DNA of 64,000 nt, taken from contig NC_135241.1 of the NCBI RefSeq assembly GCF_947623445.1, positions 24,244,501 through 24,308,500 of the forward strand, given 5' to 3'. Source of the stretch: Clavelina lepadiformis (Eukaryota > Chordata > Ascidiacea > Aplousobranchia > Clavelinidae). Of the stretch, positions 5,530-64,000 are shown one piece after another. A program made the translations under genes and the position numbers. Under the pieces are notes generated by a model. It saw nothing but the letters and a program-made list of their open reading frames with translations. It did no database searches and was not told where the DNA came from. Every line of letters starts with the position of its first letter. Position 1 is the stretch's first letter.

Positions 5530-6769
5530 AATAATATGAACAACATAATATCAATTATGTTTACAATGTAATAAAGATAATGCAACCTGTTTGTGTTGGA
5601 AATATGGAAACGGACCCATTGTGTCAATGCGTGGGATTACAAAGTGTTGGAAATAGTTGTCTAGGTTTGTGTTCGTCTCCTTTAACTCTTTGTTTAGGGC
5701 TAGGCCAGTGGTTCTCAACCTTTTTTGGCTTACGGCACCCTGCAAACAACCAAAAGATTTGGCGGCACCCACTGTCAAACTAAAAAGTTTCTGCATTAAA
5801 TAAAAATAAGTTTCGCAACCGTTTTCCTGGATTAGTGATTAGTGCGCAATAACTTGCCGCACCCTTGCGAAACGTAAATGGCACCCCGGTTGAAAACCAC
5901 TGGGCTAAGCCAATCAGCACGAATCCTTTCAACTCTGTAGGAGTCATTCCCTCGGGCATTACAATGTATGACGTCATTGCGCATCAAATTCGGAACCTGA
6001 TTCACATTTGTTGCGAGTCCAGTGCTCGAACCAACCGGCTAACACGTCGACAAAATTTTAAAAAGCTTTTAACCGAGCTTTTAAAAAATTTTGGTAGAAA
6101 ACTCCAAGAAGCTTGATTATGCCCCGAATTGTGTAGGCAATGTATACGCATCTACGTTTAACAACGTTTATACGTGAAACATACCTTTCATGCGTTTATA
6201 CGTTTACTGAAATTTTCGTTTTTGCATTCTCATTTATACGAAAAAACATACATATATGCAAATGAAAAATGGCAAACCGATCCGACTTTGATTGTGAGAT
6301 TAACATTGAAGCAAATGATTGATATAAGTTAAGCTCGTTACAACGTAATTTGATTTCCAAACAAAAATGTGTGGAGAGATTGCTGAGATTCCTTTGGAAA
6401 AACTTACCATCTACCTGTATAGCTTATATGTTGTGAAAAAGTCGCAGTTGCGTATTCAAAGTATTTTGCACTAGGCCTACAGCATATGGCACAAAATGAG
6501 TACAATATGGGATTGGAAGGTTCTGCACTGCGTAATACGCTCCAGGCACATTACCATTTTTATAAAGCTGTTAAGGATTACCGAATGTCAAATATTTCTT
6601 GCTCAGCGCGTCGACCAAGCAACTGTATACGTTAATATTCAAGCTCAATGTATTGGCCTATGTTCAAGCAAAAGCGTGTATGTATCCCGGTATACTTTCA
6701 GGAAAATGTGTATTTGAACAAACTTTTATGTGAGAAAAAGTTAGAAGTTGGCCTAATTGCAGCAAGGAT
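5530..6769 (+). repeat. 5' flank of NXPE module, copy B
   Basis: Homology to the other NXPE upstream regions starts right after the satellite (ATTATGTTTACAATGTAATAAAG at 5553 matches about 37081). It runs to the start codon of copy B. It contains the 197-bp hAT MITE and no gene of its own. The satellite therefore replaced or interrupted the more distal part of this module, which copies C-E still have. Confidence 0.75.
5706..5902. mobile_element. hAT-like MITE, 197 bp (NXPE module copy B)
   Basis: The ends are CAGTGGTTCTCAACC and GGTTGAAAACCACTG, a 15-bp TIR with one mismatch. The 8-bp flanks GGCTAGGC and GGCTAAGC are a target duplication with one change. CAGTGGTTCTCAACC is a well-known hAT/Charlie-type terminus. 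The same element sits at the same place in NXPE modules C, D and E, so it was inserted before the modules were duplicated. It has no coding capacity. Confidence 0.88.
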
Positions 6770-8923
6770 ATGATGAGCATGTTTCGTGGAAAAAAACGCC
6801 TAATTTTCGCCGTAGTTGCCGCTTATTTAACTCTTATCTCTTTTTGGCTCATTTTGGACCAGACAGCATTAGACGAGAATCATCCAACAAAGCAAAATTA
6901 TCCATTGAAAAGGCAAAGTAGCCAAGGTGAAATGAGCGAAGAAAACGAACTGGCGTTTGACTGGTCAACAACAAGCTCGGCGTCGGAAAGCAAACACTTC
7001 ACACCACCCAGTGATGCTTTGGATCCGAATTCCGCTTACTATGGAAACATTTACAAGGACATGTATGGCCATCCTGTCCGCAACGCAAGTATCTATGGGA
7101 ATGAAACGTTTAAAGTGGATTGGAAGAAATATTTCCCGGCAATTATAACTTCACTGAAGAAATACGAAGTTTAAAATCCTACGCGTGATCCCGCAGCGTT
7201 TACAAGTGAGAAATCAACTGTTAGCCTGGAAACAAGTAACAAAGCCTTCAAAGTAGGAGATGTGCTTGTTGCCCATATACAAGCCAAAGATAGATTGAAT
7301 CGAAGTAAAACTTTTGGAGGTGATTACTTCAGGGCGAGGCTAATTCGAACAGAACCAAATGGAAATTTAACAGACGGAATTGCCTGCAAAGTTAAAGATC
7401 ATTTAAACGGATCTTACACCCTGCAAGCTCCGCTACTAATGGCTGGTACGTTTATCTTGGAGGTAAAGCTGGTGTGTCCACTAGAAGGAATTGCTGGATT
7501 TATAAATTTTACTTCAATGCGAAACAACAAAGGAAATTTTTTTCAGGCTATTTTACAGACAAACGAAACGGTGGAATGCAATATGGACCTAAACACATTT
7601 GACGGGTGAGAATTACAGTAGATATCGCAAACTTATTACTTTATATAAAAATTTTGTCCTATCGTAGCATTGTTCAAGGTGAAGTCTCTACAAATAAAAC
7701 ATTAGTCTACACTACCGGCTGAATACTGCCACAACTAGCCTATTTGTTTATTCTGGGATCCATGCAACAGTGGACAAATTTCATCAGCATGTCCCGCGGG
7801 ATTGGGTGGTCAGGGATACTCATAAACTGACATGGTCTATAAAAATAGGTCCAAAATGTGTCCTGTAAGCAAAGCCGATAAATAATATAGCTTCATAGTT
7901 AACTTACATAAGTATATTGCTTATTTCCTTACCGTTATACATTACATTAAAAGAAAGTTATTTCATTACAGTTATGAAAAGACACCGATGTGCGACTACG
8001 GAAATCCAAGAAACGGAGAGACTTGGTTCTGTGTTTTGCCGCCTTCAAGGGAATGCTCACCAATTACATGGCTGGTTATTGACAGAAGAGGCCGTGTACC
8101 GCCGTTTGATTACAGAATAAAATACCTGCAAATTTATGGCAACGTGGCACAAATCGTAGGATCAGGAACACAAATAGATGTTTCACTTGGGGCGTTTAAT
8201 GATGAGTCAATCAAGGTATTAACTCCGCCATCCGTCTATTTGCACCAGGGGAATTGGATAAACACACTGAGCTCAAAACCAATTCCATCTTCAAAAAACT
8301 TCCACGAGTGTCTTGAACACAAACCTGTTTATATGTTTGGTGATTCGACAATCAGACAATTTTTCTACTTGTTTAAAAGTAAGTTTGACCTGGAATTATA
8401 TGGTCCAGACAACAGTAAAGTTTGGCAACAACCAAAAACTGCAAGAAGTAAAGAAGGTAAAAGCAAAATCACTCTTTATTACAGAGCCCATGGACCGCCA
8501 CTTGGAAATCCAGGCCCTCCAAGTAGTCGACCTTACTTAACTGATTCCATTGATGGAATCAAAGTTGAAAATGAATCTCAAGTTTACGTAATATTTAATA
8601 TAGGCTTGCATCTACTGCAGGATGAAACATCTTTGTATGTCCGGCGTCTGTTAAGTATCAAAGAAGCCATTATTCGACATCACAAATCTTTTTCAAACTC
8701 AAAATTTATTGTGAGAGGAATGAACGTAGTCGAAACAATTGACGAATGGCTCATTATGAGATATGAAACATTACTGAGGAAGATTTTTAAAAATATGACA
8801 AATGTATTTTATTTGAACTTGTGGGACATGACTACAGTGATACCTCTAAATGGTTATCATCCAACACCTCCAGTTTTAAATCAGGAAGCGTTGCTTTTGC
8901 TCAACCTTTTGTGTGAGGCATAG
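6770..8923 (+). pseudogene. NXPE-family (neurexophilin and PC-esterase) copy B, one nonsense codon
   Basis: Two exons, 6770-7605 and 7972-8923 (donor GG/GTGAGA, acceptor CATTACAG, split Gly codon), would give 595 residues, typical for NXPE proteins. Layout: signal anchor at residues 10-27, neurexophilin-like domain around 130-280 with GGDYFRARLIRTEPNG, then the PC-esterase domain with YMFGDSTIRQFFYLF. In that domain Ser404 lies in the GDS motif and His575 in YHPTPPV. A TAA at 7172-7174 replaces the CAA present in copies C, D and E at residue 135. Everything after it is open, so the change is recent, or it is a polymorphism or sequencing error. If real, only a 134-residue stub is made. The family sits in the secretory pathway or at the cell surface; substrates are mostly unknown. 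Confidence 0.88.
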
Positions 8924-9009
8924 CGATTATAACCATTGATGACGTAAAAGTCAAAATTGTTTTTTGTTTGAGAGTTTGTAAGCCTAATTCTTTGGTTGTT
9001 AGTTATTAC
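8924..9009. other. 3' flank of NXPE-B
   Basis: This is paralogous to the region after NXPE-C (40518-40603). Copies D and E have lost this segment and join their stop codon directly to more distal sequence. Confidence 0.6.
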
Positions 9010-9612
9010 TAGGGCAACCAAAAGTCAATATGGTCAATTTTTTTTACCTGCTCAGAATGCTATGAAACAAGCACAAAACAAATTTCAGCTTTGTACGACG
9101 TGTGGTATAGAAGTTATTAGGTCAGATAAAGTCAAAATGTTACGTTAGGTCAAAATACGGTCAAATTGTTTCGTTAGGTCTTTTTTTAGGTCAAAATCTA
9201 TTAAACTTGTAATTTTGTAACCATTTTGTAATATTATTCTTCCGTTTTTCTCTTTTCTTGTACCGCAAACAATTCCAGTCCCGCAAATTTTACTTAGAAC
9301 CAAAGACACAAAGAGAGGGAAGGCTTTTCAGCGCGTTTGGTGACGTCACGATGTGACAGCATTGCATTTGAAACTGAAAGTTGTCAATCTTAATACGCAG
9401 AAACGAAAAAAAAGTCAACACTAGAAAAGCATTTTGTCATTTTTAAATGCAGCTTTAGATTAGAAAGTTGCTGTAGACAGTGTAGAGACTATCAGTATAG
9501 CGTTTTTCAAAATAAGGTCAAAATTTAAACGTTTTAGGTCAAAATGAGGTCAAAATTTGCAAATTTTAAGGTCAAAATTTAAAATTTTTAGGTCAAAAAA
9601 CTGGTTGCCTTA
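9010..9612. mobile_element. hAT-like MITE, 603 bp, with clean empty site in copy C
   Basis: The ends are TAGGGCAACC and GGTTGCCTTA (TIR with one mismatch), flanked by identical GTTATTAC octamers at 9002-9009 and 9613-9620. The paralogous site after NXPE-C (40596-40603) has a single GTTATTAC and no insert, which fixes both boundaries. The interior carries repeated GGTCAAAAT / AGGTCAAAA motifs near both ends and no open frame of note. Confidence 0.9.
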
Positions 9613-10726
9613 GTTATTACACTATACCTAAAATTTCATTAAAATTTATCACACTTAATAGAACTTCAGAACAGTAGGCTACGCATGGTTTTTCCAGTCG
9701 CCCAGTTGCTTGATTCTGGCTTTTTATCTGGACAAGAGGCATCGTTTTCTTTCAAAAGAGAAAAATTGTTATTATGTGTTTCTCATTTTTTTATGTTTTA
9801 GGCTTCAAAATAAAACATTTTGTTTTTCGTTGTCATTTTCACAAATCAATGTAACTCTTATAGTAATGGTTGATACAGAGGTGGTTTGGAAACAGCTTTG
9901 TTTTGCCTTATTATTATTGTTTTAAACCAGAAGTTTGTTTTTCATACTTTCAGTCAAATAAATGTTTCAAGCACTTGGTAAACTGATCGAATTTTTACAG
10001 GTTAGTAGCAAAAACATCTGGCTTCCTGTATACATCATAATTGTAAAGCAAAAGAAAGTGAATTTAGTTTAAATTAAGTATTTCCACAAGTGATACATTT
10101 CTAGAAAATTTTCTTGTTACGCCCCGCATCCGCTGTGCGGAAAAAGAGGTGACTGCGGGAAGAGAACGCAAGAGAATAGTTAGTCGAGTTAGTGGTGCGT
10201 AAATTAGTAAACGAAAACGATTCGCTTCAATGCGGAGAGAGAGAGTAAAAGTATGAAAATATGACAATATCTTAAAAATTACAAACTCCAACTTTATAAA
10301 ACAAACATGGACAGATAGCTGAACATTTTTTAGGAAAAGTCACCAAATTTCAAATTTCTGCAGCAAACAATGCGACTTTACGCCACGTTTTTCTGTGACT
10401 GTATGCAGGAGAAGCCAAGTCTAGTGTAAATAGGGTTAAGCTCGTTACAACGTAATTTGATTTCTAAACAAAAATGTGTGGAGAGATTGCTGAGATTCCT
10501 TTGGAAAAACTTACCATCTACCTGTAGCTTATATGTTGTGAAAAAGTCGCAGTTGCGTATTCAAAGTATTTTGCACTAGGCCTACAGTATATGGCACAAT
10601 TTGAGTACAATATGGGATTGTCGATATCTAACAAGAAACTTTAAAAACGTTTCGATGCATTCTCTAAACGAAAATTAGACGTTTAAAATTGAACAATTTA
10701 AATTCACAAACTAAATGTTAGAAACC
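9613..10726. other. Intergenic, partly paralogous to 40596-41290
   Basis: From 9613 to about 9990 and again from about 10620 it follows the region after NXPE-C. A fragment of the NXPE upstream repeat reappears at 10435-10620 (GCTCGTTACAACGTAATTTG and onward), out of place. It is probably a small rearrangement. No gene is supported. Confidence 0.5.
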
Positions 10727-10792
10727 ATGGGTTATACAAAAGAAGAAATTGATGCAGCCTACCAGCAATCATTTTTGCACTTTATTTTATGA
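10727..10792 (+). pseudogene. Short ORF, frameshifted relative of the 41291 micropeptide
   Basis: It starts with AAACCATGGG, a strong initiation context, and encodes 21 residues beginning MGYTKEEIDAAYQQ. The homologous frame at 41291 runs 31 residues and ends in a membrane-like helix. A one-base length difference after GCAGCC puts this copy out of that frame. Copies at 46537 and 57616 have the same short form. Which form is ancestral is not decided. Confidence 0.3.
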
Positions 10793-11430
10793 TTTACATA
10801 TCCTTAAAGCAAAATGAGTAACCTAAACGATGTGTAGTTCGCAGGCTATAGCTTAATGTTAGCTTAGGTAATAATCATGACTACAATATGGTAGCCTATA
10901 GTATAGGCAACACGCATAAGTTACATATTAATAAACGTGAATTTTCAAAATGTCAACATTTCTTTTGAAAATCATACTTTTATTTTGATTGCTTGCTTTC
11001 GGTACATGTATTTTGGAACCAAACTTGTCTAATAATTTTTATCATAGTGTTGTGGTGAGGTTAGGCTGGTTGGTTGTTTCTTATAAATAATCCGACATAT
11101 ATAAAGATGTGACTCCGTACTCTGAACGCTTTTTTTGTTTTATCCTGGCGTCCGATTAAAGCCACATTTTTGGGATTCCCCTACTGCCAACTCTTTTCAA
11201 GGGATTTTGCAATTCTTGGAAAGATCTCGTTTGAGCCCTAATCTGCCAATTTTAGTTGGTTTACGGCCCGGATCAGATAGGCCGTATTTGAGGTAGCATA
11301 ACGTGTAGATTCATGACATCAAGCAGTTAACATAAAACGTTTTTATAACGATGCTAAATGAGGGAAGTGGAATCGCAAACATTGCAGTTTTTTGTTGTTA
11401 TAGAGATTTTTCAAAATCTGAACATCATTG

Positions 11431-12142
11431 TGTGGCGACCGTGATAACATATTATAACAATTAGATAAATTGGCACTTTAAAAGCGGTTTGTGTAGGTTT
11501 CTCCAGCTGGAATTTAATTAAATGTTTAAACAGACGTATTTATCGTCGTTAAGCAGTTATTCAAACAAAAGACTTTAAAATGTTTTAAGTAGCATTGTAT
11601 TTTACCGTGTAACATTCGATGGTACTTTGGTCAAGGTTTCGGTATAATAGAAGATGTAACATAGCTTGTACGTAGCAATGTATTGTTCCTAGTAGTCTTT
11701 ATTCAATCGTAGTTCCAAATTGACATGTGACGTAGTAAGTGTGTCAAGTGGTTTTCTGTACCGATGTAAATCGATTTGAATTCTTTGGATAAAAGCTTAG
11801 ATTCGCTCATTGGTTAATACTGGAGTATAAAAGCAAATGTTTGGTTTAAATCGGTCTCTCTTGAAAATTCTCTTCTCTCTGAGTTATTTCCTTTGTTCTG
11901 CTGAATTGAAGTTATTACTGAATTATTCGGAATTGGGATCATGGTGTAAACATTTCTAATTCGATACAACCTATTCGGACAATATAACAATTAGACTTTA
12001 TGAAGTTGGTGTTGATTTAAGAAGCAATATAGAGACAGTAAACGCGACGGAGTCAAAGATAATCATTTCGGAGTCAAACAATAAGACTAGCAGGCTTGGC
12101 TTAGGCCATCCCTAAAGCTACCACCACCATCAATTCCCATAA
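11431..12142. mobile_element. Possible LTR-element fragment or other insertion, macrodomain upstream region copy 1
   Basis: This segment of about 712 bp is missing from the paralogous place in copy 2 (58316-58318), where the flanks join directly. It begins TGTGGCGACCG, carries a TATA-like GAGTATAAAAGC near 11823, and a TATAACA near 11990 could close a TG...CA LTR. It has no coding part and no second LTR, so if it is LTR-derived it is only a broken remnant. Family assignment is tentative. Confidence 0.3.
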
Positions 12143-12148
12143 TTGATA

Positions 12149-12610
12149 CAGTGCTTCCACGATTATCCGATCTATTTGGGACAATGTATTCTGAAACGTG
12201 ACCAGATAAGCAAAAAATTTGGGTAATTTAATTCGTACATTTGCAAGTCAACTCCTACATTTGCATTCATTATACAAGTTAAAATTATGTACATAACACA
12301 TACTACTGATAAAACAACCCTTTTACGTTTCACATTACCTTTCGAACATGAATCCATCTCAAAACTTTAATAATTAGGCCTACCAGCTGTGTACAGTGTA
12401 GTTACAATTCCACAGCTGACACTACCACAGGACAGCAGCCCCTGATTGTTTTAATAGTTATGTAGTAAACTATATTATTGCGTTTCACGACATTGTGATG
12501 ATTGGATTTAACGTGAAGTAAATTTCTCGGAAACGATTCGTCCAACGACTAGTTAAAAAGCCATCCAGTTTTGAAATGTTGCCACAAAATAGAGCGAATA
12601 ACAATCGAAT
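12149..12610. mobile_element. pogo/Tigger-like MITE, right end deleted
   Basis: The left end CAGTGCTTCCACGATTATCCG follows a TA, as in the complete copy at 58323-58807. The right inverted repeat is missing here. Sequence jumps from GAATG at about 12611 to GGATATTCAGTGC, whereas copy 2 continues with the right TIR and about 600 bp more. The difference is therefore a deletion in this copy. Confidence 0.7.
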
Positions 12611-12635
12611 GAAGGATATTCAGTGCACGTCATTT

Positions 12636-12725
12636 TTGTCTTGGAAGTTGAGTGATTTAGTGCTGGCCTCGTAGTAGTAGACATTCTGTGTTCAATACCC
12701 AGTGACCCTGTACCATTGTAATGTG
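12636..12725 (+). mobile_element. tRNA-derived SINE remnant
   Basis: AAGTTGAGTGATTTAGTGCTGG resembles the tRNA A-box half. GTGTTCAATACCCAGTGACCC resembles the B-box half, followed by the same CCATTGTAATG tail as the SINE at 965. The SINE is duplicated at 59441 with the rest of the block. Confidence 0.55.
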
Positions 12726-13410
12726 TTTGGCCGAGGCATTTTAGGCCCCATTATACTTGTAAAATTTCTTTGTTTATTTTACTATAAAGTAAAATTACTA
12801 AAAATGCAATTAGTCGAAAAATCTCGCGTAGGACTTCCCGAAATTTTGCATGTCATTTTGCTATGCTTTTGGCCATTATTTCATGAAATCCTAATGAAAT
12901 CACATATCTCTAACTATTGTAATAGAAGGTTAAAGTCAAGTCATTTTTGAGTCAAAAATGTTAAAATTTCATCAATTTTGACCTACAGTTTTGGCTTACC
13001 TAGACATGCGACCTTGAAGTTTTTAATGTGCCATTTGCTAAGTTAATCCACGCACTAAAAAACAACACCAGCTATGCTGGCCTCTTGTTGACACTTTTTT
13101 AACAACTACGTAGAAGTCCAACTAAATTGTGGAAATTGCATAATTTCAGCATGTACGGCTCATTAACAACGTTTGCAGTTGTTCAGTGGACCTGGTGGAC
13201 AGTTCTAAATTCTGGCAATGCCATATAAAATATCAGAAATGCAACTAGGAAGTGTGTAACGACTGAAACTTGCACAAAGAATAGCTTGGTAACTAGGCTC
13301 AAACGATGAGGTATCATTGCTGGGTTTAAGTCGCGCAAAGACTTGCTTCAGTTCGACGATAAAGATTGTCATACCACATCATCATGCCAAAATTGGCAAA
13401 AATTCGTGTT

Positions 13411-13578
13411 CTCGTCGAAAACTGTCGTACTTTCCATTTGAACCGGTGGGTAGCTTGGAGATTTTTAGAAGAAACCTCAAACTGTTTCTTTGCTGCTCAC
13501 CAATTTGTCCATGACATACCCTCGCTGCACACCGGAGATCTCGTCGAAAACTATCATATTCTGCAGATTGGACCGGTG
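13411..13578. repeat. Pair of 38-bp direct repeats upstream of the macrodomain gene
   Basis: CTCGTCGAAAACTGTCGTAC to ACCGGTG (13411-13448) is repeated with changes at 13540-13578 (CTCGTCGAAAACTATCATAT to ACCGGTG), period 129 bp. Both are kept in the second macrodomain copy near 60226 and 60362, the first less well. The function is unknown; a regulatory role would be speculation. Confidence 0.6.
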
Positions 13579-14230
13579 TTTTTTTGCAAATGGCCAATGA
13601 AAAATTTTAGTTGTCATTTTTTGAAAATTTGATTACTTTATATGTATTTCTGCTGGTGGTTATTCATGCTCTGGCAATGGTATGCATTTAAATAAATAGT
13701 GATGTTTTTATGTTTCTCTGAATCTTTTATGCCATCATCACTATTCATTGTAGTTTAAGGAAAAAACTCTCAAGGTTTCCTGTTGCAAAATTTATGGTGC
13801 GTTACCAAATAAAGGTTAACTTTTTAAATTTTAAAGTGTTTCATTTAGTTCATAACAACTGACTATTAACTACTGTTAGTCATAAGTATGATAGTTACAT
13901 AAATAATGCCACCACCATCATTAGCAAATAGTTGCAATACTGCATACTGTTTTTCCATTGCTAAGCATTTTTGCATTGAATTACTTATTTGTGTGCAAGC
14001 CTGGAAAGATCTTCATCTAAAAATTCATGGAATTGCACTTTTTGCCTGAGATTTACTAGAATTCATCACCATATATTCTGTTCTTCGAGTTTTCAATGGA
14101 CGTTTGTCGCAATACTAGATGGGGAAAATATTTTATATTGATGTTGTCACACAAATTCATATGAAGCAGTTTGCTAACCTAAATCATGTTCGTTTTGTTA
14201 ATTTTTGTACTAGGTGCTGTGACAATTATC

Positions 14231-15382
14231 ATGCAAAAGTTTAAGTGTAATCCAAACTTTAACAAGAGAATAAAAATAAAGAAAGCAGACATCACAGCAT
14301 TGAAAGTTGATGCCATCACGAACGCAGCCAATGAGAGTCTGCTCGGAGGTGGCGGCGTTGATGGCGCCATCCACAGAGCGGCCGGGCATGAATTGCTGAG
14401 AGAATGTCGCACATTGAATGGATGCAAGACTGGTGAAGCGAAGATAACAAAAGGCTACAAGTTACCTGCGCGCCACGTCATTCACACTGTCGGCCCGATT
14501 GGTGAACAACCAGAAAAGTTGCAAAGTTGTTACTACAATAGCTTGGAGTTGGCTAGACGGAATAATTTATCTTCGATAGCTTTTCCGTGCATTTCAACCG
14601 GTGTTTATGGATACCCTAATGAACACGCAGCTCGTGTTGCATTAGGCACAGTTCGTCAGTGGATGGAAGAAAATGGAACAAACTTAAATTTGAAAATCAT
14701 CTTTTGTCTTTTCCTAGAAATCGATAAATATCACTATGGACAGTTAGTTGATGTCTACTTTCCTGGTTTCAGCGCAAAATCTGTTAAAAGCAAACCAGAA
14801 TTAGATTCTCATGCTGGTAGTGATAAGATCCAAGACAACAATGTTCAGGAGAGCAATTCATCGAGAGAGCGTCCTTCTCAAGATGGCGTGGATGCAATAA
14901 ACAGAGCAGGAGCTGTTTCATCCTCACCTGCTGGTGGTAACGAGAAAACCAAGGAAGCCGTCACTGATTTAGATGACGATAAGAAAGAAAAGAAGAACTC
15001 GGAAAAAGTCGTGACTGAGCAGCAAGAGGAAGTGGACACTTTGACTGAAGATAAATCAAAAACAAAAGAAGAGCAAAAAGATGTGGAAGCACTTGGGTCT
15101 AAAGATTTAAAAGAGTATGAAACTAAAGATGAAGATAAACGTCCATCCAAAGCTGCAAAGGAGCATGGTTCTAAAGATGCTGAAAAGCACCCAGTTAAGG
15201 AAAAACGGAAATCCCAAGATGTAGACCAAAGTAGAATGGAAGGTGCAGATGAAACTGAACCTGATGATAAACCTACAGACTCTGAATCCTGTGCTCACTC
15301 TGAAAATGGTACTTCTTTTAAAAAGCAAGAAAAAGGTGTTGATGTAGACACTTATAAGCAGATCCCGTCAGAATTTGTGTGA
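14231..15382 (+). CDS. MACROD2-like: MACROD2-like ADP-ribose hydrolase (macrodomain), copy 1
   Basis: Translation from the ATG at 14231 gives 383 residues. The macrodomain (about residues 10-175) shows [54 protein letters not shown] and [13 protein letters not shown], all the ADP-ribose binding loops of the MacroD class, which removes mono-ADP-ribose from acidic residues. The catalytic-type Asp in the GVDG loop is present. Residues 185-383 are a charged Lys/Glu/Asp-rich tail, as in vertebrate MACROD2. The frame continues upstream to 14186, but those residues translate a pyrimidine tract ending TTTTTGTACTAG, a 3' splice acceptor at 14213. I therefore start at 14231 and infer a 5' UTR intron or trans-splicing. 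The CDS itself has no intron. Confidence 0.92.
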
Positions 15383-31687: not shown

Positions 31688-31725
31688 GCGCACTTTCGTT
31701 TAATAAAATTTGTGTCTCCTAGCAG

Positions 31726-36030: not shown

Positions 36031-36059
36031 AAACTAGTATAACCATGGACTAACCATAA

Positions 36060-46515: not shown

Positions 46516-46536
46516 TAAAATAAAGTGTTAGAAACC

Positions 46537-52028: not shown

Positions 52029-52517
52029 TTAACAAAACCAACGCTGAAAAAGTGAGCTTAACTTGTCAAGCAATAATTTTCCGGGATGAAACTTATGATA
52101 CTTGTAAGTGACGAGACACAGGGTTAAACACAACAACACAGATGTGATTGCAGCTTCACGTTGTATTCGAATAAATGCCGGATGAGTTGCCATGAGTTTG
52201 TCACTGACATTTCCACCGATGTTTTCACGAGGGAAGGACGTGTCTGGAATTTCCTTTCCTAGAAACTCACACAAAGGCGCCCATCCTTGACGGACATCGT
52301 AGACCAGTAGTTTATCAGGAGGACAATTCTGAAAGCGTTAATTTGTTTCATGTTCCACTGCATATGAATCAAAACAATGCGACAAGCATCACAACAAACG
52401 ATCTCACCTGTTAGCAATACTTGGTATGTTGTCTGAAGCCTCTTTTCAGTAAAATGGCATTGCTATGATAGCTTAAGTAAAACGGATGACGCATATGTAA
52501 ACCAGATCGACACATGA
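52029..52517 (-). pseudogene. Sulfotransferase gene 1 duplicate, exons 3-4 only
   Basis: Exon 3 (52517-52408) and exon 4 (52328-52029) are collinear with gene 1. Exons 1 and 2 are missing because the duplication ends in intron 2 at 52870. Exon 3 also has a TAA in place of the CAA codon of its C-terminal CQQ. Exon 4 is still open and reads PDTSFPRENIGG where gene 1 has PDKPFPRENIGG. Without the P-loop it cannot be functional. Confidence 0.9.
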
Positions 52518-54376
52518 CTGAAAGTCAGAAAACATTCTAATTGTGAATACGTTGTTTTAAAACCTGGGATTTAGTTTATCTGATACAAAATGCTAACTAA
52601 CTTGAGCGCGCGAACACACAAGTAAATCTTGTGTCTGATATCATCTTTATTCTCGAGCTGAGATAAATATTTTTGCACGCCTTCAACTTTGCGAGATTCT
52701 TCGTCGCTCGAGTTTCAATTATGCACCAGTTAGATCCGATGAAACAGACAGATTTTTTACTTTGCTTGTGTGTATTGTCTGAATTTTGGACTGTTTTTTT
52801 GGATCTCCGAACAGGAAAAAGCGGCCGTGATTGTCTTGCGCAAGTGCATGGCAATGTAGCACCAGTGGGATTACTTTATTCAAATACAAAGTAGGCCTAC
52901 GTCATACCATGTCTCCAGTCGAAGTTCTAAGTTTACAGGACTAACATCAATATGCGCATGCGCGTATTATTATAAATGATTCAAAATTCAGACCATGTCC
53001 TTACTTGTAAAACAAATGAGTATAGTTGTCCATGGGAGATGCGAGCTCAGTGTCCAGTGTTTCTCTCATTCTTTGTGGAAAGTGGGACACGTCCAAAAAC
53101 AAGTTGATCTTGTGTGAAAGAACACTTCTCACTGAATATTCTGGTGAAATAGTTTTGAATAATAATTATTGGTTAAGTAATTACAGTATAAGGCTATAAG
53201 CAAAATAAAATCACAAAATTGGCCTTAATTCTGACGTAATTCAAGGCTCTTGTGAAGTCATACGTAACCACAGACAACATGTAACCGACTTCTATTGTCG
53301 GTGAACTGGGCTTGGATTAAATTGCTTTGTTTCGTTGTCCGGGAATCAAAAAGGGTGGTTAAAAGGCTACACCGTTAATTGAAAATGGTTGGGCAAGGTG
53401 AAAAAAGCAATCGCTTAAAAAGAAGGTAAACTCACGGATGCGCCTACAACATGTAAATTTATTTTAATTAACACTTTATGCTAACCTTAGCGCTTTTTGT
53501 ACTTTTTTAATTTAAAAATGTCCAATAAAGTCGCAAACAGTGAGTTTACATATTTTTTAATCTGAAGTAACCTTTACCGGTGGCGTAATATCGGCAAAAT
53601 GGCACCAGCAACAGAATCTGCTGTATAAAAAGTACCGAGTACCGGCAAAGTATGGAACTACTGTTTTCAAATACAGTAGTACCAAATACCAGAACAGTCG
53701 GTACATTTTTTGCCAAGTATCGGTACCGTTACCATCGATACTTTCAAAGTACCGACTGCCCGCCTCTGGCCATTCCACAGCCGTCTGCCGTTATGACAAT
53801 CCATCTGCGATCCGTTATGACGAAAATTCAAAGACCTCGAAACCGGAATCAAAACATGGCATACTATTTGGCAAATAAGGGTTTTTTGGATACGCGTCAT
53901 TGGGCGCATCACGAAAGATGTTTCAATGTCGTGCCAGCTATCTTTAGCAGAATCTGAAGGCAACGGACAACGGTAACAACTGTTGAGTGCAAGTTGCACC
54001 CAGTGTATGGCTATAAAGCACTCTATAGCGAATTTACGACGACTACGACGACTACGACGACCAATCAAATATATTGTACGCGCATTATCAGTAAAAGAAT
54101 AAACACAGAGTTTCTATAGTTAATTGTTGACAAATGACAACATAACACCAAATATGTTTACAGTGTAATAAAGATAATGCAACCAGAGTATAAACAGCTG
54201 ATTTCATCTGTGCATTCAAGCACAAAAGTAAGTTAAAAAAAGTTATTTCGATTCCAAGTTTCCCAAGCAAGCGGAAACGGACCGACCCATTGTGTCAATG
54301 CGTGGGATTACAAAGCGTTGGAAATAGTTATCTCGGTTTGTGTTCGTCTCCTTTAGCTGTTTGTTTAGGGCTAGGC

Positions 54377-54575
54377 CCGTGGTTCTCAACCTTTTTTGGC
54401 TTACAGCACCCTGCAAACAACCAAACGATTTGGCGGCACCCACAGTCAAACCAAAAAGTTTCTACATTAAATAAAAATAAGTTTCGCGATCGTTTTCCTG
54501 GATTATAGTGATTAGTGCGCAATAACTTGCGGCACCCTTGCGAAACGTAAATGGCAGCCCGGTTGAAAACCACTG
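54377..54575. mobile_element. hAT-like MITE (NXPE module copy E)
   Basis: A duplicate of 43298-43496 with GGCTAGGC octamers on both sides. Confidence 0.87.
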
Positions 54576-55445
54576 GGCTAGGCTAATCCGCACGAATCCT
54601 TTCAATTCTGTAGGAGTCATACCCTCGGGCATTACAATGGTATGACGACATTGCGCATCAAATTCGGAACCTGAGTCACATTTGTTGCGAGTCCAGTGCT
54701 CGAACCAACCGGCTAACACGTCGACAAAATTTTAAAAAGCTTTTAACCGAGCTTTTAAAAAATTTTGGTAGAAAACTCCAAGAAGCTTGGTTATGCTCCG
54801 AATTGTGTAGGCAATGTATACGCATCTACGTTTAACAACGTTTATACGTGAAACATATGTTTCATGCGTTTATACGTTTACTGAAATTTTCGTTTTTGCG
54901 TTCTCATTTATACGAAAAAACATACATTTATGCAAATGAAAAATGGCAAACCGATCCGACTTTGATTGTGAGATTAACATTGAAGCAAATGATTGATATA
55001 AGTTAAGCTCGTTACAACGTTATTTGATTTCTAAACCAAAAATGTGTGGAGAGATTGCTGAGATTTCTTTGGAAAAACCTTCCATCTACCTGTATAGCTT
55101 ATATATTGTGAAAAAGTCGCAGTTGCGTATTCAAAGTATTTTGCACTAGGCCTACAGCATATGGCACAAAATGAGTACAATATGGGATTGGAAGGTTCTG
55201 CACTGCGTAATACGCTCCAGGCACATTACCATTTTTATAAAGCTGTTAAGGATTAACGAATGTCAAATATTTCTTGCTCAGCGCGTCGACCAAGCAACTG
55301 TATACGTTAATATTCAAGCTCAATGTATTGGCCTATGTTCAAGCAAAAGCGTGTATGTATCCCGGTATACTTTCAGGAAAATGTGTATTTGAACAGAATT
55401 TTGATGTGAGAAAAAGTAACAAGTTGGCATAATTGCAGCAAGGAT

Positions 55446-57594
55446 ATGATGAGCATGTTTCGTGGTAAAAAACGCCTAATTTTCGCCGTAGTTGCCGCTT
55501 ATTTAACTTTTATCTCTTTTTGGCTCATTTTGGACCAGACAGCATTAGACGAGAATCATCCAACAAAGCAAAATTATCCATTGAAAAGGCAAAGTAGCCA
55601 AGGTGAAATGAGCGAAGAAAACGAACTGGTGTTTGACTGGTCAACAACAAGCTCGGCGTCGGAAACCAAACACTTCACACCACCCAGTGATGCTTTGGAT
55701 CCGAATTCCGCTTACTATGGAAACATTTACAAAGATATGTATGGCCATCCTGTCCGCAACGCAAGTATCTATGGGAATGAAACGTTTAAAGTGGATTGGA
55801 AGAAATATTTCCCAGCAATTATAACTTCACTGAAGAAGTACGAAGTTCAAAATCCTACGCGTGATCCCGCAGCGTTTACAAGTGAGACATCAACTGTTAG
55901 CCTGGAAACAAGTAACAAAGCCTTCAAAGTAGGAGATGTGCTTGTTGCTCATATACAAGCCAAAGATAGATTGAATCGAAGTAAAACTTTTGGAGGTGAT
56001 TACTTCAGGGCGAGGCTAATTCGAACAGAACCAAATGGAAATTTAACAGACGGAATTGCCTGCAAAGTTAAAGATCATTTAAACGGATCTTACACCCTGC
56101 AAGCTCCGCTACTAATGGCTGGTACGTTTATCTTGGAGGTAAAGCTGGTATGTCCACTAGAAGGAATTGCTGAATTTATAAATTTTACTTCAATGCGAAA
56201 CAACAAAGGAAATTTTTTTCAGGCTATTTTACAGACAAACGAAACGGTGGAATGCAATATGGACCTAAACACATATGACGGGTGAGAACTACAGTAGATA
56301 TCGCAAACTTATTACTTTATATAAAAATTTTGTCCTATCGTAGCCCTATTCAAGGTAAAGTCTCTACAAATAAGACATTAGTCTACACTACAGGCTGAAT
56401 ACTGATACAACTATTTGTTTATTCTTGTATGCATGAAACAGTGGACAAATTTCATCCGCATGTCCCACGGGATTGGGTGGTCTGGGATACTCATAAACTG
56501 ACATGTTCTATAAAAATAGGTCCAAAATGTGTCCCGTAATCAAAGCCGATAAATAATATAGCTTTATAGTTAACTTACATAAGTATATTGCTTATTTCCT
56601 TACCATTATACTGTACATTTGAAGAAAGTTATTTCATTACAGTTATGAAAAGACACCGATGTGCGACTACGGCAATCCAAGAAACGGAGAAACTTGGTTC
56701 TGTGTTTTGCCGCCTTCAAGAAAATGCTCACCAATTACATGGCTGGTTATTGACAGAAGAGGCCGTGTACCGCCGTTTGATTACAAAATAAAATACCCAC
56801 CAATTTATGGCAACGTGACACAAATCGTAGGATCAGGAACACAAGTAAATGTTTCACTTGGGGCGTTCAATGATAAGTCAATCAAGGTGACAGATCTGCC
56901 ATCCGTCTATTTGCACCAGGGGAATTGGATAAACACACTGAGCTCAAAACCAATTTCATCTTCAAAAAACTTCCACGAGTGTCTTGAACACAAACCTGTT
57001 TATATGTTTGGTGATTCGACAATCAGACAATTTTTCTACTTGTTTAAAAGTAAATTTGACCTGGAATTATATGGTCCAGACAGCAGTAAAGTTTGGCAAC
57101 AACCAAAAACTGCAAGAAGTAAAGAAGGCAAAAGCAAAATCACTCTTTATTACAGAGCCCATGGACCGCCACTTGGAAATCCAGGCCCTCCAAGTAGTCG
57201 ACCTTACATAACTGATTCCATTGATGGAATCAAAGTTGAAAATGAATCTCAAGTTTACGTAATATTTAATATAGGCTTGCATCTACTGCAGGATGAAACA
57301 TCTTTGTATGTCCGCCGTCTGCTAAGTATCAAAGAAGCCATTATTCGACATCACAAATCTTTTTCAAACTCAAAGTTTATTGTGAGAGGAATGAACGTAG
57401 TCGAAACAATTGACGAATGGCTCATTATGAGATATGAAACATTACTGAGGGAGATTTTTAAAAAAATGACAAATGTATTTTATTTGAACTTATGGGACAT
57501 GACTACAGTGATACCTCTAAGTGGTTATCATCCAACACCTCCAGTTTTAAATCAGGAAGCGTTGCTTTTGCTCAACCTTTTGTGTGAGGCATAG
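55446..57594 (+). CDS. NXPE-family protein, copy E
   Basis: Exons 55446-56281 and 56643-57594 give 595 intact residues. The sequence equals copy D except for Lys in place of Asn in the IACKVKDHLNG stretch. At that base (56066) and at a nearby silent one (56084) E agrees with copy B, not D, a sign of a short conversion tract. Domains, catalytic-type Ser404 and His575, start acceptor and immediate poly(A) signal are as in D. Confidence 0.91.
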
Positions 57595-57615
57595 TAAAAT
57601 AAAGTGTTAGAAACC

Positions 57616-57681
57616 ATGGGTTATACAAAAGAAGAATTAGATGCAGCCTACCAGCAATTACTTCTGCAGATTGTTTTGTGA
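57616..57681 (+). pseudogene. Short ORF related to the 41291 micropeptide, copy E
   Basis: Identical to 46537-46602. Confidence 0.25.
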
Positions 57682-58322
57682 TTTACATATCCTTAAAGCA
57701 AAATGAGTAACCTAGACGATGTGTAGTTCGCAGGCTATACCTTAATGTTAGCTTAGGTAATAATCATGACTACAATATGGTAGCCTGTAATATAGGCAAC
57801 ACGCATAAAGTACATATTAATAAACGTGAAATTCCAACCGCTCAACATTTCTTTTGAAAATCATACTTTTATTTTGATTGCTTGCTTTCGGTACATGTAG
57901 TTTGGAACCAAACTTGTCTAATAATTTTTATCATAGTGTTGTGGTGAGGTTAGGCTGGTTGGTTGTTTCTTATAAATAATCCGACATATATAAAAATCTG
58001 ACTCCGTACTCTGAACGCTTTTTTTGTTTTAACCTGGCGTCCGATTAAAGCCACATATTTGGGATTCCCCTACTGCCAACTGTTTTCAAGCGATTTTGCA
58101 ATTCTTGGAAAGGTCTCGTTTGAGCCTTAATCTGCCAATTTTAGTTGGTTTACGGCCCGGTTCAGATAGGCCGTATTTGAGGTAGCATAATGTGTAGATT
58201 CATGACATCAAGCAGTTAACATAAAACGTTTTTATATCGATGCTAAATGAGGGAAGTGGAATCACAAACATTGCAGTTTTTTGTTGTTATAGAGATTTTT
58301 CAAAATCTGAACATCATTGATA

Positions 58323-58807
58323 CAGTGCTTCCACGATTATCCGATCTATTTGGTACAATGTTTTCTGAAACGTGACCAGATAAGCAAAAAATTTGGGTAA
58401 TTTAATTCGTACATTTGCAAGTCAATTCCTACATTTGCATTCAATATACAAGTTAAAATTATGTACATAACACATACCACTGATAAAACAACCCTTTTAC
58501 GTTTCACATTACCTTTTGAACATGAATCCATCTCAAAACCTTAATAATTAGGCCTACCGGTTGTGTACAGTGTAGTTACAATTCCACAGCTGACACTACC
58601 ACAGGACAGCAGCCCCTGATTGTTTTAATAGTGATGTAGTAAACTATATTATTGCGTTTTACGACATTGTGATGATTGGATTTAACGTGAAGTAAATTTC
58701 TCGGAAACGATTCATCCAACGACTAGTTAAAAAGCCATCCAGTTTTGAAATGTTGCCACAAAATAGAGCGAATAACAATCGAATGCCGGATAATCCAGGA
58801 AGCACTG
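58323..58807. mobile_element. pogo/Tigger-like MITE, 485 bp
   Basis: The ends CAGTGCTTCCACGATTATCCG and CCGGATAATCCAGGAAGCACTG are imperfect inverted repeats flanked by TA on both sides (58321-58322 and 58808-58809). TIRs containing GATTATCCG with TA target duplications fit the pogo/Tigger branch of Tc1/mariner. A 61-codon minus-strand frame inside (58531-58346, also 12357-12172) is within the element and not called as a gene. Confidence 0.8.
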
Positions 58808-59440
58808 TACTACCCGGTTTGCAATACTGCTTCGGCCAAAAATTCTTAGATGTTCTGTGGCCATACTCTGTGCATGAGTAGGCCTATCCAAAACTCTTTT
58901 GGTTACAACCGCAATATACAAATATACGGCACTTGGTGGCTAGACTAGCCTATGTTTTTAAAATCTAATCGAAAATTCGTAAACTATATAGGCGTAATGA
59001 GGTAGTGTCTTTGACTTAAGAGTCGGGTCTCTAAATGTTGGATTTTTGACCAGTGGGCCAGACTGCAAAGTTTGGCATAGACGCACTCAATACCGCTTTT
59101 TATGAGCTTCATTGGCGTTCTTAAGGTGCGTTAGTTTGCATTTAGTGACTTGGACAGAAATTCTGTGCACTCAACTTGCGATTGATTTAAGTTAAACTGT
59201 GTACATAATTATGTAGTTGTGCACCCAAATATGCCTGATTACTTTTTCACACCGCACAACTGTTCTTTTGTTTGTTTGGTACACCCAAGATCTTGTGGAA
59301 AACAGCAAGTCTCGCCGGTCGGCCATCTTCGAAATTGTAGCACCTGCATGCACAAGGTTTAGCAATGTGCATCCTTAACCTTTTTGTCTTCAGTTTATAA
59401 TAAATAAACAAGAATTGAGGATTCAGTGCACGTCATTTTT

Positions 59441-59530
59441 GTCTTGGAAGTTGAGTGATTTAGTGCTGGCCTCGTAGTAGATACACATTCTGTGTTCAAT
59501 ACCCAGTGACCCTGTACCATTGTAATGTGT
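59441..59530 (+). mobile_element. tRNA-derived SINE remnant, copy 2
   Basis: A duplicate of 12636-12725 with small changes. Confidence 0.55.
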
Positions 59531-61061
59531 TTGACCAAGGCATTTTAGGCCCCATTATACTTGTAAAATTTCTTTGTTTATTTTACTATAAAGTAAAATT
59601 ACTAAAAATGCAATTAGTCGAAAAATCTCGCGTAGGACTTCCCGAAATTTTGCGTGTCATTTTGCTATGCTTCTGGCTATTATTTCATGAAATCCTAATA
59701 AAATCACATATCTCTAACTATTGTAATAGAAGGTTAAAGTCAAGTCATTTTTGAGTCAAAAATGTTAAAATTTCATCAATTTTGACCTACAGTTTTGGCT
59801 TACCTAGACATGCGACCTTGAAGTTTTTAATGTGCCATTTGCTAAGTTAATCCACGCACTAAAAAACAACACCAGCTATGCTGGCCTCTTGTTGGTTTAA
59901 GACACTTTTTTAACAACTACGTAGAAGTCCAACTAAATTGTGGAAATTGCATACTTTCAGCGTGTACGGCTTATTAACAACGTTTGCTGCTGTTCAGTGG
60001 ACCTGGTGGACAGTTCTAAATTCTGGCAATGCCATATAAAATATCAGAAATGCAACTAGGAAGTGAGTAACGACTGGAACTTGCACAAAGAATTGCTTGG
60101 TAACTAGGCTCAAACGATGAGGTATCATTGCTGGGTTTAAGTCACGCAAAGACTCTTCAGTTCGACGATAAAGATTGTCATTGTCACCACATCGTCATGC
60201 CAAAATTGGGAAAAATTTGTGTTCTCGTCAAAAAATGTCGTACTTTCCATTTGAACCGGTGGGTAGCTTGGAGATTTTGAGAAGAAACCTCAAACTGTTA
60301 AAACAATTTCTTTGCTGCTCACCAATTTGTCCATGACATACCCTCGCTGCACACCGGAGATCTCGTCGAAAACTATCATATTCTGCAGATTGGACCGGTG
60401 TGTTTTTGCAAATGGACAATGATAAATTTTAGTTGTCATTTTTTGAAAATTTGATTACTTTATATGTATTTCTGCTGGTGGTTATTCATGCTCTGGCAAT
60501 GGTATGCAATTAAATAAATAGTGATGTTTTTATATTTCTCTGAATCTTTTATGCCATCATCACTATTCATTGTAGTTTAAGGAAGAAACTCTCAAGGTTT
60601 CCTGTTGCAAAATTTTATGGTGCGTTACCAAAGGGTTTTGTGATGGTTAAGTTTTAAATTTAAAAGTGTTCCAATTAGGTCATAACAACTGACTATTAAC
60701 TACTGTTAGTCATAAGTATGATAGTTACATAAATAATGCCACCACCATCATTAGCAAATAGTTGCAATACTGCATACTGTTTTTCCATTGCTAAGCATTT
60801 TTACATTGAATTACTTATTTGTGTGCAAGCCTGGAAAGATCTTCATCTAAAAATTCATGGAATTGCACTTTTTGTCTGAAATTTACTAGAATGCATCACC
60901 ATATATTCTGTTCTTCGAGTTTTCAATGGACGTTTGTCGCAATACTAGATGGGGAAAAATATTTTATATTGATGTTGTCACACGAATTCATATGAAGTAG
61001 TTTGCTAACCTAAATCATGTTCGTTTTGTTAATTTTTGTACTAGGTGCTGTGACAATTATC

Positions 61062-62213
61062 ATGCAAAAGTTTAAGTGTAATCCAAACTTTAACAAGAGA
61101 ATAAAAATAAAGAAAGCAGACATCACAGCATTGAAAGTTGACGCCATCACGAACGCAGCCAATGAGAGTCTGCTCGGAGGTGGCGGCGTTGATGGCGCCA
61201 TCCACAGAGCGGCCGGGCATGAATTGCTGAGAGAATGTCGCACATTGAATGGATGCAAGACTGGTGAAGCGAAGATAACAAAAGGCTACAAGTTACCTGC
61301 GCGCCACGTCATTCACACTGTCGGCCCGATTGGTGAACAACCAGAAAAGTTGCAAAGTTGTTACTACAATAGCTTGGAGTTGGCTAGACGGAATAATTTA
61401 TCTTCGATAGCTTTTCCGTGCATTTCAACCGGTGTTTATGGATACCCTAATGAACACGCAGCTCGTGTTGCATTAGGCACAGTTCGTCAGTGGATGGAAG
61501 AAAATGGAACAAACTTAAATTTGAAAATCATCTTTTGTCTTTTCCTAGAAATCGATAAATATCACTATGGACAGTTAGTTGATGTCTACTTTCCTGGTTT
61601 CAGCGCAAAATCTGTTAAAAGCAAACCAGAATTAGATTCTCATGCTGGTAGTGATAAGATCCAAGACAACAATGTTCAGGAGAGCAATTCATCGAGAGAG
61701 CGTCCTTCTCAAGATGGCGTGGATGCAATAAACAGAGCAGGAGCTGTTTCATCCTCACCTGCTGGTGGTAACGAGAAAACCAAGGAAGCCGTCACTGATT
61801 TAGATGACGATAAGAAAGAAAAGAAGAACTCGGAAAAAGTCGTGACTGAGCAGCAAGAGGAAGTGGACACTTTGACTGAAGATAAATCAAAAACAAAAGA
61901 AGAGCAAAAAGATGTGGAAGCACTTGGGTCTAAAGATTTAAAAGAGTATGAAACTAAAGATGAAGATAAACGTCCATCCAAAGCTGCAAAGGAGCATGGT
62001 TCTAAAGATGCTGAAAAGCACCCAGTTAAGGAAAAACGGAAATCCCAAGATGTAGACCAAAGTAGAATGGAAGGTGCAGATGAAACTGAACCTGATGATA
62101 AACCTACAGACTCTGAATCCTGTGCTCACTCTGAAAATGGAACTTCTTTTAAAAAGCAAGAAAAAGGTGTTGATGTAGACACTTATAAGCAGATCCCGTC
62201 AGAATTTGTGTGA
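61062..62213 (+). CDS. MACROD2-like: MACROD2-like ADP-ribose hydrolase (macrodomain), copy 2
   Basis: 383 residues, apparently identical to the product of 14231-15382. The two silent differences I noticed (GATGCC/GACGCC near 61142, GGTACT/GGAACT near 62140) contrast with frequent indels and substitutions in the upstream flanks. All macrodomain loops are intact. It lies between NXPE-E and the third secreted-protein copy, the same order as in the first unit. The contrast between coding and flanking similarity suggests strong constraint or coding-centred gene conversion. Confidence 0.92.
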
Positions 62214-63339
62214 ATGTACATTGCGTAAGACCATCAACTCGTTTTAATTGAATGCTTTGTGACATGTGTGCTTCACAATAATTGTTCTGCCTATTCTAGG
62301 TGGTTAAATTTCATATTCGATTCAATCTTCATTTCTGTTAAGATTGTGTTTTCTAATTTTGTATGATTTTGTTTTATCTGAATACTTTCAACTGGATATT
62401 TAATAAGGTAGCGATTCTTGGGCTATTATTTGTGTTGTCATGCACACTTTTATGGCACAAATTTTGTTGTATTTTTCGCTATTAAATAATTTAATTAGCC
62501 TCACCAACTCCGGAAGTGATTTCAACTCTTTGAAGGCTTTACATCAGATCTTTTCAATGGAAATCAGCTTGGTTGTTGTAACCGAAAGCCAGACAGTGCA
62601 CTCTCTTTGCAGAACAACTCGTTTTGACGAACCATTGAGTAAATTACTGCCACAACATAAACAATGCCGGGCAATAATCTCTTACAGAATGCAATCAGCC
62701 ATTAAACTGGCGATCTGCAAATAAACTACGAGTGTTGTCAAACAGATGAGGTCAAAGTTCAAACTCGCCTTTGTTTGGCGACGTTGAAACGCGATGGGAC
62801 TTCTCTGTAAGATGATTGCACCATAACCATATAGATCGTGGCAACGTAGCATAAAATGTTTGGTTGGTAAAGATATTTTACATGTTTGGGAAAGATTTCT
62901 TCGTCCTGGTGAAATTAACAAGTTTAGTATTCGGACTAAAGTATCTTTAGAGATGACGACAATTTCAAGTTCGGCGTCATCGGGCAAGTTCTGCAACTAC
63001 TAAAAGATCGCTGCTTATAAACAAATATGTTTGTCGTATGAGAAAGTTGAAGTCAATAAATGTGCATAAAAACAGATACGATTAGCTGAACGTGTTCCAT
63101 GAATACAAGTGTTTTTCTACGCAAGTCAGACTAAGAGATAAAAGTCGTCTGTTAATTTATTTACCCTTCAGGAATTTAACTTTAGCCTGGTTACGTCGGA
63201 CAACTAAGGATTGAATGATTTTTAACTGAAAATGTTTCTTTGCCTACCATCAGTGGGGTAGGCCTGCATTGATTGATTGATAAACATAATTCCACTACAA
63301 AGGAATCTCACCATCAGAAAGGTTCAGCATCACATAAGG
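62214..63339. other. Macrodomain 3' region and spacer, copy 3
   Basis: Nearly identical to 46757-47849 and 15417-16507. The content is as described for the first copy. Confidence 0.5.
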
Positions 63340-63995
63340 ATGTCTGACCCTGGAGCGATGTGGCGAAACCTGGCGGAGTTTCTAGCAGTGGTGGTTGTCC
63401 TCTGCTTAACCCAACTATCAGTACCAGCAAGTGGACACGGCAAAAGTAAGTCGTCACAGTATTCAGAATAGTATCAAAAAAAAACAAGAGCGATAAGGCG
63501 CTTGGCCAAAGCGCTCCTAGCAAGTCTTAAAAAGGCGACAAGCTCGTGAGCTATTTACCCAGGAGTAGCCTAAATGGGTCACCACCGTCATTCACTTTCA
63601 CGGCAGACTCTTGTTTTATTCAGAGGTGTGTCTGCTAAAAAACGTCCGTTACAGCGAAGGCACTCAGTTTCAGCACGAATGGAAGCCAGGGTGCTTGTTG
63701 AATTGCACGTGCGTCATACAAGGAGAGAAAGCTTACGGAAACTGCACCAAGCGGTAAAAGAAGCTTGTTAGGAATTGAGTTAAACTAGGCTAAAGATTAA
63801 CTGCATTTAAGTCCATTTCAGTCTGCAACTTGTAAAGTTTGTTTTACATCAACTTGCTGATTTTCACTACATTTTTAAACTTTTCACAGATGCAACCCGT
63901 TCTCTTATCCTCCCGGATGCAAAGTGCTACGTAATGCTTGCAAGTGTCCTTCTAAATATACTTGTCCAAACGGTGATAAGTGCCGTAATCCAGAG
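63340..63995 (+). CDS. Secreted cysteine-rich protein with VWC-like spacing, copy 3 (cut by window end)
   Basis: Exons 63340-63445, 63624-63753 and 63890-63995 are present, in the same phases as the other copies. The remaining four exons would lie beyond the window. It carries Gly in GHGK like copy 1 and Lys in NACKCPSK like copy 2. No lesion is visible in the part seen. Confidence 0.78.
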
Positions 63996-64000
63996 GTAGG

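What the first reader, a model, noticed from the sequence alone, without database searches (positions are those of the whole stretch)
5530..64000. Repeated four-gene unit with different losses in each copy
NXPE, macrodomain, cysteine-rich secreted protein and an opposite-strand sulfotransferase-like gene occur in the same order about three times. Unit 1 (about 5.5-22.3 kb) has all four, with NXPE carrying a stop. Unit 2 (41.8-52.87 kb) lacks the macrodomain and has a truncated sulfotransferase. Unit 3 (52.87 kb to the end) is complete as far as visible. Co-duplication of functionally unlike genes gives a natural record of which members are kept.
Basis: seen in the sequence. Interest (0 to 1): 0.75.

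Follow-up and report, generated by a model that had tools for sequence, protein, structure and literature searches.

The report
Tandemly duplicated gene block, patchily homogenised
An animal chromosome carries a block of unlike genes that was copied in tandem, partly copied again and apparently patched by gene conversion, which is an ordinary kind of gene-cluster turnover rather than a clean record of which genes are kept.

Summary
The repeats are real in the assembly. Units 1 and 3 carry NXPE, a MACROD-type macrodomain gene, a cysteine-rich secreted gene and an opposite-strand sulfotransferase in the same order; unit 2 lacks the macrodomain gene and has a cut sulfotransferase. Corrections: (1) flanks of the own genome show that units 1 and 3 belong to a larger ~28-kb duplication (5.6-34.3 and 54.3-82.3 kb) with two more sulfotransferases each. 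(2) NXPE has five copies in the window, one partial, one standing alone (36.1-41.6 kb), plus an intact copy 0.69 Mb away. (3) The 'losses' are unlike events: one nonsense codon; a 4,424-bp gap with 13-bp filler that takes out the whole macrodomain gene; a duplication breakpoint inside the sulfotransferase. (4) The copies are mosaics: units 2 and 3 differ by 0.06% over NXPE but 0.6-1.8% beyond; units 1 and 3 differ by 0.2% in noncoding sequence of a 4.4-kb tract, 4.4% just right of it. Gene conversion between copies is the best explanation, so the copies are not independent witnesses of retention. An assembly or haplotype artefact in unit 2 cannot be excluded without reads. Interest is low to moderate.

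The parts
2904..4217 (+). N0: partial NXPE copy (upstream region and about 190 codons of the first coding exon), cut off before a tandem pair of tRNA-Ser genes
5606..22289 (+). Unit 1 (left part of the larger duplicated block A, 5606-34308)
6770..8923 (+). NXPE copy N1, coding exons 6770-7605 and 7972-8923; nonsense codon 135 at 7172-7174
14186..15382 (+). Macrodomain gene, unit 1 (MACROD1/2-type; hydrophobic N-terminal stretch and charged C-terminal tail read by eye)
16508..18503 (+). Cysteine-rich secreted protein, unit 1, six exons modelled by hand, 265 aa, no internal stop, weak fibronectin type I similarity
20686..22280 (-). Sulfotransfer_4 gene Sa, unit 1, four exon pieces, no stop in them
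25151..26407 (+). Sulfotransfer_4 gene Sb of block A, also present in block B beyond the window
27581..28905 (-). Sulfotransfer_4 gene Sc of block A, also present in block B beyond the window
36060..41588 (+). N2: solitary NXPE copy with intact coding exons 38369-39204 and 39566-40517
41792..52872 (+). Unit 2
44367..46515 (+). NXPE copy N3, exons 44367-45202 and 45564-46515, intact
46743..46755 (.). 13-bp filler where unit 3 has 4,424 bp (57822-62245) with the whole macrodomain gene
47850..49847 (+). Cysteine-rich secreted protein, unit 2, no internal stop
52038..52503 (-). Sulfotransferase Sa, unit 2: last two exons only, one with an internal stop
52871..64000 (+). Unit 3 (start of block B, which runs to about window coordinate 82343)
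55446..57594 (+). NXPE copy N4, exons 55446-56281 and 56643-57594, intact
61017..62213 (+). Macrodomain gene, unit 3, protein identical to unit 1
63340..64000 (+). Cysteine-rich secreted protein, unit 3, first exons (the gene ends at window coordinate 65296), no internal stop

Best explanation
This is a real tandem gene-block duplication in an animal chromosome that evolves by birth and death with gene conversion. An ancestral block of NXPE, macrodomain, cysteine-rich protein and three sulfotransferases was duplicated (block A 5.6-34.3 kb, block B 54.3-82.3 kb). NXPE was also copied alone. Later a further partial block (unit 2) arose in front of block B through two joins without extensive homology: at 52871, with 2 bp shared, and at 46743-46755, with 13 bp of filler in place of 4,424 bp. 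Gene conversion between copies then patched stretches of them. Shown: the copies, the junction sequences and the mosaic divergence. Inferred: template switching or end joining as the cause of the joins, conversion as the cause of the patches, and the order of events. The first two rivals below are two routes within this explanation.
For: Self-comparison of 164 kb. Macrodomain gene at 2 loci and cysteine-rich gene at 3 loci genome-wide, all in this array, each with one further weak match elsewhere. Junctions with filler and a 2-bp overlap; 9 bp of the filler match the flank 16 bp downstream in inverted orientation, reached by 2.9% of 20,000 random 13-mers of the region. Unit 2-3 divergence 3/4951, 15/2523 and 61/3470 in consecutive pieces, chi-square p = 1e-18. 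Of 107 informative sites of units 1, 2 and 3, the counts of sites joining 2+3, 1+2 and 1+3 are 28, 16 and 5 left of 49.85 kb and 4, 12 and 42 right of it; 0 of 5000 permutations reach the max-chi-square of the 2+3 and 1+3 classes. Units 1-3, noncoding: 7/3610 differences in 18.5-22.9 kb against 85/1924 in 22.9-24.85 kb and 41/1565 in 12.6-14.2 kb. The flanking sulfotransferase array has 8,084-bp units, two of which differ at 4 of 8084 bases, so young near-identical copies also occur next door.
Against: No reads or second individual were available, so unit 2 could be a haplotype wrongly placed in tandem. Rate differences along the block were not modelled. The third informative-site class shows no signal (1076 of 5000 permutations). 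The tract 18.5-22.9 kb is not alike throughout: the Sa exons inside it differ at 12 of 786 bases between units 1 and 3, and other noncoding stretches are intermediate (0.89% at 15.4-16.5 kb, 0.83% at 24.85-25.85 kb, 2.63% at 25.85-28.95 kb). The filler match is only weakly significant. The NXPE tree is unresolved except for N3+N4.
Confidence: 0.73

Rival explanations
1. Unit 2 arose in one replication-based template-switch event: the NXPE block was copied, a 6.1-kb piece from another copy or from the homologous chromosome was inserted, and copying went back to the start of the NXPE block. The macrodomain gene was then never present in unit 2.
For: The NXPE blocks on both sides of the 6.1-kb piece differ at only 3 of 4951 bases, while the piece itself differs by 0.6-1.8% from unit 3; both ends are joins without extensive homology, one with filler.
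Against: Conversion of the NXPE block after an ordinary tandem duplication and deletion gives the same pattern, and conversion-like tracts are seen elsewhere in the array.
Confidence: 0.4
2. Unit 2 arose as a full tandem duplicate of unit 3 (about 15.4 kb), later lost 4.4 kb with the macrodomain gene through end joining, and its NXPE block was later converted to or from unit 3.
For: Colinear order; the gap takes out one whole gene and leaves the coding exons of both neighbours intact; two of the three N3/N4 differences (44987, 45005) match N2 in N3 and N1 in N4, as a short conversion patch would.
Against: Needs three events; divergence is not uniform along the unit, so conversion must be added.
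Confidence: 0.38
3. Assembly artefact: unit 2 is the other haplotype (with a heterozygous macrodomain deletion) placed in front of unit 3.
For: Divergence of 0.06-1.8% between units 2 and 3 is of the size of heterozygosity in many outbred animals (recalled); the junction at 52871 has only a 2-bp overlap.
Against: The joins lie inside a 26.5-Mb contig with no N in the 164 kb read. In the last 171 bases compared, unit 2 differs from units 1 and 3 at 6 of 159 sites plus 14 gap positions while these two are identical over 161: high for an allele of unit 3, but a short stretch. In one search the matches above 80% identity to NXPE coding exons are all on C2; only 40 of 143 candidates were scored.
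Confidence: 0.17

Closest known systems
Tandem segmental duplication with birth-and-death evolution and interlocus gene conversion (known class, recalled)
   Same: Direct tandem copies of several genes, damaged copies, mosaic divergence, sharp tract edges
   Different: The block joins four unrelated gene families and one copy lacks one inner gene; nothing outside the known class
Template switching (MMBIR) and polymerase-theta or foldback end-joining scars (PMC8421209, PMC5068794, PMC11724301; seen only as a search listing with the start of each abstract)
   Same: Short overlap, short filler that matches nearby sequence in inverted orientation
   Different: Inferred from scars alone; no genetic or read evidence
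NXPE family / NXPE1 sialic acid O-acetyltransferase (PMC12216134, passages seen; PDB 9pja, sequence alignment)
   Same: Neurexophilin and NXPE4_C domains above the Pfam cut-offs, GDS motif with the catalytic serine
   Different: The position aligned to the essential Asp526 of NXPE1 is Ser in N3/N4 and Asn in N1/N2
MACROD1/MACROD2 ADP-ribosylhydrolases
   Same: Macrodomain best matched by MACROD2 and MACROD1; NCBIfam O-acetyl-ADP-ribose deacetylase model NF001664 just over its cut-off (202.8 against 200), the other ten listed models below theirs
   Different: Hydrophobic N-terminal stretch and long charged tail, read by eye

Membership tests
Tandem segmental duplication | Direct repeats over 1 kb at 90% identity or more, near each other on one chromosome | tested here: met
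Interlocus gene conversion | Mosaic relationships with tract edges among paralogues, beyond chance | tested here: met
   (0 of 5000 permutations for two of three classes, 1076 of 5000 for the third)
Interlocus gene conversion | Exchange between loci rather than haplotype switching in the assembly | not testable with these tools
   no second haplotype or individual held
Assembly duplicate (false duplication) | Half read coverage or no spanning reads | not testable with these tools
   no reads available
MMBIR or polymerase-theta end joining | Microhomology and templated filler at junctions | tested here: inconclusive
   2-bp overlap; inverted 9-bp match, null 0.029
NXPE sialic acid O-acetyltransferase | GDS motif with catalytic Ser | tested here: met
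   GDS in N1-N4
NXPE sialic acid O-acetyltransferase | DXXH motif with essential Asp (D526 in NXPE1) | tested here: not met
   Alignment of N3 to NXPE1 puts Ser there; by the same column N4 is Ser, N1 and N2 Asn, N5 Asn. Of the distant paralogues, both C1 copies read Asp and C9 Gln; the C6 match stops before the motif
MACROD-type macrodomain | Sequence match to MACROD1/2 over the macrodomain | tested here: met
   Pfam Macro E = 1.1e-44; MACROD2 E = 1.1e-58
Sulfotransfer_4 (PF17784) | Score above the family cut-off | tested here: met
   Two exons of Sc; first exons of Sa, Sb and Sc in the genome search
Fibronectin type I domain protein | Pfam fn1 above its cut-off | tested here: not met
   fn1 E = 3.4e-4, 21.2 bits against a cut-off of 27; fibronectin 3ejh E = 1.4e-5

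The most novel reading that the evidence does not exclude
The block is a co-functional surface-modification cassette (NXPE-fold enzyme, sulfotransferases, secreted FN1-like protein, with a MACROD-type enzyme beside them) whose dosage is under selection. The amplified NXPE copies have given up the essential Asp of the O-acetyltransferase site and taken a new role, while the two C1 paralogues keep it.
Probability: 0.08. Interest if true: 0.45.

Novelty: new member of a known kind. Interest (0 to 1): 0.22.

Why it matters
It is a clear example of how a cluster of unlike genes turns over: duplication, partial re-duplication, clean absence of one gene and patchwork homogenisation within about 80 kb. 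It warns against reading retention from such arrays without first mapping conversion tracts. The amplified NXPE copies that lack the Asp needed in human NXPE1 are a small lead for enzyme work.

Tried and rejected
tRNA, tandem-repeat and Rfam scans found nothing that explains the units, only a tRNA-Ser pair and an 8-bp satellite left of unit 1 and small arrays. A search for NXPE with cnidarian and expansion gave 0 papers; that the genome is cnidarian is a recalled guess, untested. A listing of octocoral genomes (12 of 21 papers listed) did not settle it. A listing on template switching and conversion (10 of 80 listed) was not used further. The NXPE tree did not resolve N0, N1, N2 and N5.

dN below dS: Fisher p 0.0009 for NXPE N1-N4, 0.007 for CysR, 0.02 for Sa, 0.0001 for Sb, 0.0006 for Sc (counts rounded) and 0.044 for the macrodomain, all between units 1 and 3, and 0.061 for NXPE N2-N4. 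Other pairs were not tested this way. These are few changes in exchanging copies, so I draw no retention claim from them. The N0 dN/dS rows and the translations for N1-N4 were out of frame and are discarded. In some searches I left out U2 49270-49395, where unit 3 holds unlike sequence, before counting 107 informative sites. One search took in bases beyond the junctions of unit 2, so its first and last windows overstate unit-2 differences; one search replaces them, and because that weakened one point against an artefact I moved its odds from 0.15 to 0.17 and the main reading from 0.75 to 0.73. I rejected selection as the cause of the unit 1-3 identity in 18.5-22.9 kb, because noncoding sequence is the most alike part.
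Full report
The window is C2:24244501-24308500 of an unnamed assembly of 209 Mb in 95 contigs. I read it with 40 kb of left and 60 kb of right flank and compared all with itself.

Anatomy. NXPE has two coding exons and 596 codons with the stop in N1, N2, N3 and N4; N1 alone has an internal stop, TAA at 7172-7174, codon 135. N0 is a partial copy. A further full copy, N5, intact over both exons, lies at C2:23.557 Mb. More distant NXPE matches (71-77% identity) lie on C1, C6 and C9. The macrodomain ORF occurs at two places in the genome plus one weak match (25 of 25 candidates scored), the cysteine-rich gene at three plus one weak match (13 of 13 scored): the array holds all close copies found of both. 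The Sulfotransfer_4 search reports 193 matches (150 of 317 candidates scored, a lower bound, exons counted apart), many of them on C2 between 24.03 and 24.37 Mb, so this family is amplified far beyond the block.

Extent. Block A (5606-34308) matches block B (54281-82343) in order, with three sulfotransferase genes in each. Unit 2 is 41792-52872: its first 4,951 bp match 52871-57821 with 3 differences and its last 6,117 bp match 15415-21508 at 98.3%. N3 and N4 also share the lack of about 1.8 kb right after the NXPE stop that unit 1 has and N2 has in part, which suggests that they stem from one derived copy.

Junctions. In unit 2 the 4,424 bp 57822-62245 of unit 3 are replaced by 13 bp. The gap starts 227 bp after the NXPE stop and ends 32 bp after the macrodomain stop, so one gene is missing and the coding exons of both neighbours are whole. 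Nine bases of the filler occur inverted 16 bp downstream; 2.9% of random 13-mers of the region do as well. The 52871 junction shares two bases (read) and lies between exons 2 and 3 of the sulfotransferase, which explains its truncation.

Mosaic ancestry. Between units 2 and 3 divergence rises from 3/4951 to 15/2523 to 61/3470. Among 107 informative sites of units 1, 2 and 3, sites joining 2+3, 1+2 and 1+3 number 28, 16 and 5 left of 49.85 kb and 4, 12 and 42 right of it; 0 of 5000 permutations reach the max-chi-square of the 2+3 or the 1+3 class, while the 1+2 class shows no signal (1076 of 5000). Between units 1 and 3, noncoding divergence is 0.29% in 18.5-20.6 kb and 0.07% in 20.6-22.9 kb, and 4.42% in the next 2 kb; elsewhere it is 2.62% (12.6-14.2 kb), 0.89% (15.4-16.5), 0.83% (24.85-25.85), 2.63% (25.85-28.95), 4.19% (28.95-31.3) and 7.32% (31.3-33.4). 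Two of the three N3/N4 differences lie 18 bp apart and follow N2 in N3 and N1 in N4. These are the usual marks of gene conversion between copies, though haplotype effects cannot be told apart without population data. In the flank, two 8,084-bp sulfotransferase units differ at 4 of 8084 sites, so near-identical young copies occur next door too.

What the genes look like. NXPE keeps the GDS motif, but the residue aligned to Asp526 of human NXPE1, needed for its activity (PMC12216134, passages seen), is Ser in N3/N4 and Asn in N1/N2. The macrodomain is of MACROD1/2 type with a hydrophobic N-terminus, perhaps a membrane anchor (inference). The cysteine-rich protein has a signal-like start (read by eye) and weak fibronectin type I similarity, below the Pfam cut-off.

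Judgement. The interpretation as a record of retention is weakened by exchange between copies and by the likely incomplete birth of unit 2. The class of event is well known; what remains open, unit 2 as artefact, template switch or duplication plus deletion, needs reads and other individuals.

Noticed in passing
window 4709-5529: A perfect array of about 102 copies of the 8-mer AGAGTGCC (100% matches) ends 77 bp before the left edge of block A.
   Followed up: no
window 4227-4561: A tandem pair of tRNA-Ser(TGA) genes with a 157-bp period directly follows the truncated NXPE copy N0.
   Followed up: no
L013-L018, window coordinates 86-123 kb: Array of sulfotransferase pairs with an 8,084-bp period; of four units compared, units 2 and 3 differ at 4 of 8084 bases, the others more.
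   Followed up: partly
whole genome G000: Sulfotransfer_4 is strongly amplified, with listed clusters on C2, C3, C5 and C6.
   Followed up: no
window coordinate 67486-67773 (beyond the window end): Exon 4 of sulfotransferase Sa in block B differs from block A more than the noncoding sequence around it and reads like Sb/Sc in part (PFPHENVAGN), which suggests conversion between different sulfotransferase genes.
   Followed up: partly
window 19831-19935, 51175-51279 and coordinate 66624-66728: A plus-strand sulfotransferase exon-1 fragment sits in all three units.
   Followed up: no
window 43292-43502: About 200 bp upstream of NXPE N3 belong to a dispersed repeat; 28 copies elsewhere in the genome are listed, a lower bound.
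   Followed up: no
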